Shown: piece by piece, positions 54,930-56,121 of the stretch | Layout: each line of letters opens with the position of its first letter | Numbering within the stretch: position 1 is the stretch's first letter | DNA from: a virus | Virus record (IMG/VR): IMGVR_UViG_3300036832_001138 | Span: 1-64,000 of that record | Strand: one strand, 5' to 3' | DNA: 64,000 nucleotides | Program-made: the position numbers and the translations under genes | Notes under the pieces: generated by a model | Told to the model about the DNA's origin: nothing | What the model saw: the letters and a program-made list of their open reading frames with translations, nothing else | The model's database searches: none

Positions 54930-56121
54930 GCGAGCCCGGCAAGTGGTGACTGGAGTCCACGTCGGATCAGGCCGGGCTCGCGGCGGTCGCAGAATTGTTT
55001 TGGAGTTCACCAAGGCACTGGCGACCGCATTCGAGATAAGAGCGCCCGGCAGGCTACATTTGGAGTTCATAGGGCCAATGGCCGGGCGCGGCGGTCGCAG
55101 CGCAAGATTGGAGTTCACGTGATCTTTGGCGACCGCATTCGAGGGAAAGAGTGCGCCCGGCAGAGCTTCACAGGAGTTCACGCCGAATTTGGCCGGGCGC
55201 GGCGGTCGCATCTCGTCGTTGGAGTTCAATCGTGTGCTGGCGACCGCATTTCGAATAGGTGCGCCCGGCAGAAGCCGGTTGGAGTTCAGGCCAGCATTGG
55301 CCGGGCGCGGCGGTCGCACGACACCAATGGAGTGCAAGGGAGAACAGGCGACCGCATTCGAGATGGGTGCGCCCGGCAGGTCATCGTTGGAGTTCACGTG
55401 CTTGATGGCCGGGCGCGGCGGTCGCAATCTCTGGATGGAGTTCATACAAATGCTGGCGACCGCATTCGGGTGAAAGAGAGCGCCCGGCATTTCCATTTTG
55501 GAGTTCAACTGATCGCTGGCCGGGCGCGGCGGTCGCATTCCAAACCTGGAGTTCATCAGCTTACTGGCGACCGCAGTCGGTTTGATAGGTGCGCCCGGCA
55601 AGGCGATGTTGGAGTTCATATTGCCGGTGGCCGGGCGCGGCGGTCGCAGATAGGTGCAGGAGTTCACACCCGAATTGGCGACCGCGTTGGTGATAGGTGC
55701 GCCCGGCAATGATTGCTTGGAGTTCATCATGAAGGTGGCCGGGCGCGGCGGTCGCAGCGTGGCGTTGGAGTTCACGGGATCAGTGGCGACCGCGTTCGTT
55801 GTGATAGGTGCGCCCGGCAGACAGCGATCGGAGTGCACGTTCACCAGGGCCGGGCGCGGCGGTCGCAGTGGCAGTATGGAGTTCATTCGGCACCTGGCGA
55901 CCGCATTCGAGAATAGAGCGCCCGGCACGCCTCCCTTGGAGATCAATGCCGAAATGGCCGGGCGCGGCGGTCGCATCCTCGATCTGGAGTGCATCAGTGG
56001 CATGGCGACCGCGTTCGTGAAAAGGTGCGCCCGGCAGACGAGTTCTGGAGTTCACGACTACGATGGCCGGGCGCGGCGGTCGCACCTTGAACTTGGAGTT
56101 CAACCACGTCGTGGCGACCGC
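54930..56121 (-). repeat. TIGR-like dual-spacer array 2 (11 A/B pairs)
   Basis: Twenty-two hairpins in strict A/B alternation, same geometry as array 1. Left/right segments (+ strand): A6 AGTGGTGAC/CGTCGGATC; B6 GAATTGTTT/CCAAGGCAC; A7 GGCTACATT/TAGGGCCAA; B7 GCGCAAGAT/CGTGATCTT; A8 GAGCTTCAC/CGCCGAATT; B8 TCTCGTCGT/ATCGTGTGC; A9 GAAGCCGGT/GGCCAGCAT; B9 CGACACCAA/AGGGAGAAC; A10 GGTCATCGT/CGTGCTTGA; B10 ATCTCTGGA/TACAAATGC; A11 TTTCCATTT/ACTGATCGC; B11 TTCCAAACC/TCAGCTTAC; A12 AGGCGATGT/TATTGCCGG; B12 GATAGGTGC/CACCCGAAT; A13 ATGATTGCT/TCATGAAGG; B13 GCGTGGCGT/CGGGATCAG; A14 GACAGCGAT/CGTTCACCA; B14 GTGGCAGTA/TTCGGCACC; A15 CGCCTCCCT/ATGCCGAAA; B15 TCCTCGATC/TCAGTGGCA; A16 GACGAGTTC/CGACTACGA; B16 CCTTGAACT/ACCACGTCG. 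Core substitutions occur in A6, B9, A8, B12, A14, A15 and B15. Linkers (13 or 16 nt, once 14) share ATTCGNG..ATAGGT. Confidence 0.92.

What the first reader, a model, noticed from the sequence alone, without database searches (positions are those of the whole stretch)
54930..56121. Two edge-stem types alternate strictly, A then B, with no linker between them
Every A hairpin (GCCCGGC/GCCGGGC arms) is followed directly by a B hairpin (GCGGTCGC/GCGACCGC arms), and only B is followed by a 7-16-nt linker. A-to-B core spacing is constant at 48 nt. The pair, not the single hairpin, is the repeating unit. Alternating stems would prevent mispairing between neighbours and could give two guides per transcript segment, or one two-part RNA with two binding loops like an IS110 bridge RNA. 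I do not recall alternating edges as a standard feature of such arrays.
Basis: seen in the sequence. Interest (0 to 1): 0.85.

Follow-up and report, generated by a model that had tools for sequence, protein, structure and literature searches.

The report
Paired-hairpin TIGR guide RNA array
A phage genome carries an array of RNA-guide hairpins of the recently described TIGR-Tas kind in which two hairpin types always come as a joined pair, a layout conserved across about seventeen phage loci that also suggests that the two halves of each guide share one base pair of their DNA target.

Summary
The repeat is real. It is a TIGR-TasA stem-loop guide array: tasA is at 52733-53647(-), and its model matches TasH/TasR (Z 15/14.5). 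The virus record holds 18 B-A pairs: 11 at 54930-56121, 5 at 53677-54214, one at 2820-2914 and one beyond the window. In 17 non-redundant phage loci there are 130 B-A doublets, no A-B doublet without a linker, and five triples. Stems are 99% paired with compensatory changes, so the pair is the inherited unit. In simulated arrays with random spacers, one shared stem lets neighbours mispair and alternation prevents it. The last bases of spacers A and B of one hairpin are complementary far beyond chance (z 9.7, 328 guides; replicated), and codon phase fits the same register: guides appear to read 17-bp coding-DNA sites whose centre both half-guides share. No cross-talk between B and A of a pair was found, and no target was identified. 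Whether the pair stays joined after processing is untested.

The parts
54930..56121 (-). main array: 11 B-A hairpin pairs (22 guides); RNA order B, 1 nt, A, then linker
53677..54214 (-). second subarray: 5 B-A pairs, between the partner gene and tasA
2820..2914 (-). isolated B-A pair, 50 kb away, in a gap between + strand ORFs
   Evidence: fold
10320..10369 (-). isolated A-like hairpin with compensated stem GAGCCCCGG/CCGGGGCTC
52733..53647 (-). tasA, 304 aa, Nop-fold RNA-guide protein without nuclease domain
54227..54898 (-). conserved partner gene, 223 aa, fold unknown, next to tasA in nearly all relatives
56130..56159 (-). promoter-like TTGACA-N18-TATATG directly upstream of the first B hairpin (read by eye; not reported by the consensus scan, whose rule it fails)
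56182..56203 (-). terminator-like hairpin after the preceding gene, which would isolate the array as a new transcription unit
56013..56026 (-). example of the linker between pairs (RNA: ACCUUUUCACGAAC); consensus starts ACCUAUC and ends CGAAU

Best explanation
This is a TIGR-TasA system of the stem-loop class in a variant with paired guides. A transcript of the minus strand carries B-A hairpin pairs, the partner mRNA, more pairs and the tasA mRNA. Each hairpin has a GC-rich stem, box C (CCA), a 9-nt spacer, a loop repeat (UG....CCA), a second 9-nt spacer and box D (UG). A TasA dimer is inferred to bind each hairpin. The two spacers are inferred to pair with opposite strands of one 17-bp DNA site, with the central base pair read by both. 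Two different stems alternate so that the 3' arm of one hairpin cannot pair with the 5' arm of its neighbour. The single-stranded linkers are inferred to be the cleavage sites, so that the mature RNA is a two-hairpin B-A unit carrying two guides. Without a nuclease, TasA most likely acts by binding and bending or blocking the target DNA of a competing element. Shown: anatomy, strand, protein family, pair conservation, compensatory stems, half-guide covariation signal. Inferred: processing, paired release, DNA blocking, target identity.
For: Tas family: profile hit to TasR 9mty E 0.004; Foldseek 9mty E 2.6e-4; Z 15.0 TasH, 14.5 TasR, 12.2 ISCro4, 7.9 Nop5. Box C/D and two spacers of 9 nt as in PMC12045711. 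Strand. Pair as unit: 130 BA doublets, no AB doublet, in 17 loci; flanking motifs also around isolated pairs. Stem selection: 99.1% paired, several pair types at nearly every position, independently changed stems such as GCGCGCGG/CCGCGCGC and CGCTCG/CGAGCG. Anti-mispairing: 0.59 correct pairing for alternating stems, 0.19 for one stem, with neighbour mispairing of 0.31 (all A) or 0.28 (all B) against 0.00. Half-guide overlap: a9-b9 complementary in 152 of 328 guides against 79 expected, z 9.7, no within-genome permutation of 1000 reaches it; codon-phase log-likelihood -6221 for the 1-bp overlap register against -6263 and -6264 for the others.
Against: No RNA data, so paired release is a prediction only. 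29 single hairpins and five triples exist in the 17 loci. The overlap signal covers only part of the guides: 46% Watson-Crick, and no clear phase signal in the G-U and mismatched classes. No target with an exact match was found in the held phages. The tas model has moderate confidence (pLDDT 68). The folding comparison is an equilibrium model with random spacers.
Confidence: 0.72

Rival explanations
1. The hairpins are released singly, as in the published stem-loop array; the pairing has no role after transcription and alternation serves folding only.
For: In the published stem-loop array each mature RNA is one stem-loop. Single A or B hairpins occur. No covariation between B and A spacers of a pair.
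Against: Published cleavage is in the linkers, and here linkers lie only between pairs; the junction is 1 nt in most pairs. Isolated copies in the window's genome are mostly whole pairs.
Confidence: 0.35
2. The B-A RNA is a natural bridge: two TasA dimers on one two-loop RNA hold two DNA sites together, like the donor and target loops of IS110, but without recombination.
For: Same Nop fold and similar two-hairpin layout; IS621 guides also overlap, at two core bases (LTG on top positions 1-9, RTG on 8-11).
Against: No dependence between the spacers of the two hairpins of a pair; no shared core motif; no recombinase domain.
Confidence: 0.15
3. Alternation is a by-product: arrays grow by copying a founder pair, and two stem types persist by descent.
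For: Isolated pairs and near-copies of guides exist; flanks are copied with the pair.
Against: Stems change by compensation in many lineages yet A and B stay different from each other; loops differ by type in some phages.
Confidence: 0.3
4. It is not a guide array but a set of DNA repeats or terminator-like hairpins between genes.
For: GC-rich hairpins between co-directional genes.
Against: Fixed boxes, fixed 9-nt variable spacers with a specific cross-spacer covariation and codon phase, and linkage to a Tas protein.
Confidence: 0.02

Closest known systems
TIGR-TasA stem-loop arrays (Faure et al. 2025, PMC12045711)
   Same: Solo Nop-domain Tas protein, arrays beside the gene, two short spacers between box C and box D, palindromic edges, subarrays separated along the locus, phage location.
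   Different: Published edges are described as variable palindromes in singly released units. Here two conserved stem classes alternate as linker-free pairs, and the last bases of the two spacers covary; the paper saw no obvious covariation, in its passage on TasR.
TIGR dual-repeat arrays with TasR/TasH
   Same: Box UG/CCA, 9-nt spacers, loop repeat in the same position, Nop fold (Z 14.5-15).
   Different: No hairpin stem there (36-nt units with compact edge repeats), nuclease domains present, no overlap of the half-guides reported.
IS110/IS621 bridge RNA and recombinase (PMC11208158)
   Same: Nop-like guide-binding domain (Z 11.7-12.2); two-loop RNA layout; half-guides overlap at the target core (2 bp there, 1 bp here).
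   Different: No N-terminal RuvC-like domain here, no transposon ends looked for or seen, many guide pairs in an array instead of one bridge RNA, no dependence between the two loops.
Box C/D snoRNP (Nop5/Nop56/58)
   Same: Nop fold (Z about 7-8) and box C/D-like guide layout.
   Different: The 304-aa protein has no N-terminal domain like that which recruits fibrillarin; boxes UG/CCA and 9-nt spacers are those of TIGR guides; encoded by phages.

Membership tests
TIGR-Tas | Tas protein with Nop domain encoded beside the array | tested here: met
   arrays around tasA in the relatives found through it
[quoted passage not shown]
   CCA-N9-UGNNNNCCA-N9-UG in 188 units without use of stems
TIGR-Tas, stem-loop class | palindromic edges forming a stem around each unit | tested here: met
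   99.1% of stem pairs formed, compensatory changes
TIGR-Tas, stem-loop class | stem sequences variable from unit to unit | tested here: not met
   two conserved classes, B and A, in strict order; variable stems do occur in relatives G012 and G010. This is a described trait of the published arrays and not a defining one, so it marks a variant and does not exclude membership
TIGR-Tas | array RNA processed and bound by Tas | not testable with these tools
   needs RNA sequencing of a pull-down
TIGR-Tas | spacers A and B pair with opposite strands of one DNA site | tested here: inconclusive
   indirect support from a9-b9 covariation and codon phase; no target found
IS110 family | N-terminal RuvC-like (DEDD) recombinase domain | tested here: not met
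   the 304-aa model aligns from its residues 1-4 to IS621/ISCro4 residues 121-124 onward only
IS110 family | single bridge RNA with donor and target loops | tested here: not met
   18 pairs in one genome, no dependence between the loops of a pair
Box C/D snoRNP | K-turn motif bound by L7Ae-type protein | not tested
   no search for an L7Ae homologue was made

The most novel reading that the evidence does not exclude
The B-A RNA is a dual-guide molecule on which two nuclease-free TasA dimers hold two DNA sites together, an evolutionary intermediate between TIGR guides and the IS110 bridge RNA, with half-guides that already share a target core base.
Probability: 0.15. Interest if true: 0.93.

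Novelty: new variant of a known kind. Interest (0 to 1): 0.7.

Why it matters
TasA is the commonest and least understood effector of TIGR systems: what TasA guides target and how the arrays are cut are open questions. A conserved paired unit predicts a specific two-guide RNA that can be checked in one pull-down. The covariation of the last bases of the two spacers, seen in 328 guides and replicated in an independent set, gives a sequence-based reading rule for TasA guides (a 17-bp site, SpA followed by the reverse complement of SpB, sharing the central pair) and indicates protein-coding DNA as the source. That makes a systematic target search possible, and it parallels the shared core of IS110 guides.

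Tried and rejected
Rfam: no match. Target search with gaps of 0-2 in the held phage records: not above re-paired controls. With the 1-bp overlap: 64 near matches (2 mismatches or fewer) against 38 (sd 5) for re-paired controls, no exact match, and fewer than natural coding 17-mers give, so read only as 'guides look like natural DNA'. Self-targeting: 11 near matches against 6.9 (sd 1.7), not convincing. Three conserved guides scanned through IMG/VR: hits look like chance; the gap-2 hits of one guide are mostly common codon runs (KAG[EKQ]A), and an exonuclease hit belongs to a group found mainly in Acinetobacter and flavobacterial phages. Covariation between B and A hairpins: none. G-U against A-C in stems as a strand test with the first parser: too few events; better with the stem-free set. 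Helix-extension explanation of the covariation rejected: a1-b9 and a9-b1 show no signal. Search for tas relatives in bacterial genomes: none. Partner protein: no convincing Pfam, PHROGs or PDB relative. The Tas tree is too poorly resolved at its base to say whether paired arrays arose once. The supplement of the TIGR paper could not be read, so alternating stems among its examples cannot be excluded.

Full report
What was checked. The window is 1-64000 of a 73,077-base virus record. At the stated place there are 11 pairs of hairpins; five more lie at 53677-54214, one pair at 2820-2914 and one at 67393-67487 of the record, outside the window. In all 18 pairs the two types are adjacent and in the same order.

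Strand. On the minus strand every unit reads stem, CCA, 9 nt, UG....CCA, 9 nt, UG, stem (with small departures in a few units), which is the box C (CCA) and box D (UG) layout of published tigRNAs (PMC12045711). A scan for these boxes alone finds 188 clustered units on the tas strand and 2 on the other in 17 loci. Nearly all subarrays lie between genes of that strand and end a short distance before the ribosome-binding site and start codon of the next gene, here the partner gene and tasA. A terminator-like hairpin (56203-56182) and a TTGACA-N18-TATATG sequence precede the first unit. The promoter was read by eye; the consensus scan did not list it because it requires T at the last position of the -10 box. 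So the RNA order is B, 1 nt, A, linker.

What it is. The gene at 52733-53647(-) encodes 304 residues with weak Pfam similarity to the IS110 C-terminal domain. A profile of four relatives hits the solved TasR (E 0.004). The predicted structure (pLDDT 68) matches TasH and TasR at Z 15.0 and 14.5, IS110-type recombinases at about 12 and Nop5 at 7.9, and aligns only to the part of IS110 that follows its RuvC-like domain. It is therefore a TasA: the Nop domain without a nuclease. The published paper describes a second class of TIGR arrays with stem-loops whose stems are 'variable but consistently palindromic', processed at linkers into single stem-loops.

What differs. Relatives were found in IMG/VR. 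In 17 non-redundant loci, linker-free runs of hairpins are BA 130 times, triples five times, single A 22 and single B 7 times, and two other doublets contain an unclassified stem; no A-then-B doublet without a linker occurs. The linker has a conserved start (ACCUAUC) and end (CGAAU), and similar flanks surround isolated pairs. Stems change by compensation: B as GCGGTCG/CGACCGC, ACGGTCG/CGACCGT, CGCTCG/CGAGCG; A as CGCCCGG/CCGGGCG, AGCCCGG/CCGGGCT, CGCGCGG/CCGCGCG. In several phages the loop is also type-specific (B UGAAGCCCA, A UGAUGCCCA). More distant relatives (G012, G010, and the Tas-like loci of Rhizobium phage RHph_X2_25 and Arthrobacter phage Talia1610) show longer variable stems.

Why alternate. 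In a folding model with random spacers, an array of six hairpins with alternating stems forms the intended stems with mean probability 0.59. Arrays with one stem reach 0.19, because the 3' arm of one hairpin pairs with the 5' arm of the next (0.31 for all-A, 0.28 for all-B; alternating 0.00). The real arrays give 0.51-0.56 with no neighbour mispairing; isolated pairs fold to 0.999 (single folds). This supports a folding role but is an equilibrium calculation.

An unexpected signal. Within single hairpins the last base of spacer A and the last base of spacer B are complementary in 87 of 184 distinct guides (fraction 0.47 against 0.25 expected, z 7.0). In 144 guides from loci fetched afterwards the same cell of the 9 x 9 table is again the only outlier (65 against 35, z 6.1, 0 of 1000 permutations). 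Combined: 152 of 328 against 79, z 9.7, 0 of 1000 within-genome permutations. G-U combinations are also in excess (78 against 56) and A-C are not (21 against 29). If the target reads SpA followed by the reverse complement of SpB, as I worked out from the published TasR cutting data, these two bases are the same target position. An independent test agrees: a codon-phase model trained on the phages' own long ORFs prefers the register with a 1-bp overlap (log-likelihood -6221 against -6263 and -6264), in the first set and in the replication set. The preference sits in the complementary guides (0.25 per guide, se 0.04), not in the others. My reading is that guides derive from protein-coding DNA and that the half-guides share the central base pair of a 17-bp site, in a fraction of guides that I estimate at about one third (from 46% complementary against about 25% by chance); the rest may have other spacings or have drifted. 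The phase test alone cannot tell a 1-bp overlap from a 2-bp gap; the covariation does. Helix extension in the RNA would link a1-b9 or a9-b1, which show nothing. IS621 guides overlap at two core bases.

What could not be shown. No target was found. The two hairpins of a pair show no dependence on one another, which speaks against a simple bridge function. Paired release, DNA binding and biological role are inferences.

Partner gene. A gene of about 200-230 residues lies beside tasA in nearly all loci (found in the window and in 19 fetched stretches, some of them near-copies; not found in G010). Its model (pLDDT 79) is helical with no convincing relative.

Verdict. It is a new variant of a known kind, TIGR-TasA with a stem-loop array.

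Noticed in passing
all arrays; window guides at 53677-56121: Last bases of spacers A and B within a hairpin covary as complementary bases (z 9.7 over 328 guides), pointing to a shared central target base pair; the TIGR paper reported no obvious covariation in its TasR passage.
   Followed up: yes
54227-54898 (-): Partner gene of unknown fold conserved next to tasA; possible accessory protein of TasA.
   Followed up: partly
2820-2914, 10320-10369 (window); 67393-67487 of the record; G001 64637-64680: Isolated guide hairpins or pairs far from tas; the two in the window appear to lie antisense in gaps between + strand ORFs.
   Followed up: partly
G004 (L032-L034), 446-29661: A 45-kb phage record with single guide-like hairpins scattered over 29 kb, all on one strand, most with the same stem GGCCCCGGA/TCCGGGGCC and loop UGUCACCCA; no tas found in the record.
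   Followed up: no
L087 9224-9366, G011 16124-16264, L094 7717-7880 and 9174-9320: Linker-free triples of hairpins, so clusters are not limited to two.
   Followed up: partly
G005/G006/G008 and G002 guides: Seven pairs of guides share an exact half-spacer while the other half differs, in some cases with codon-like substitutions; half-guides may be exchanged or track target variants.
   Followed up: partly
MW960032.1 24663-25718; PQ559666.1 162657-163340: Tas-like proteins annotated as hypothetical in Rhizobium phage RHph_X2_25 and Arthrobacter phage Talia1610, with inverted repeats around loops of about 30 nt nearby.
   Followed up: partly
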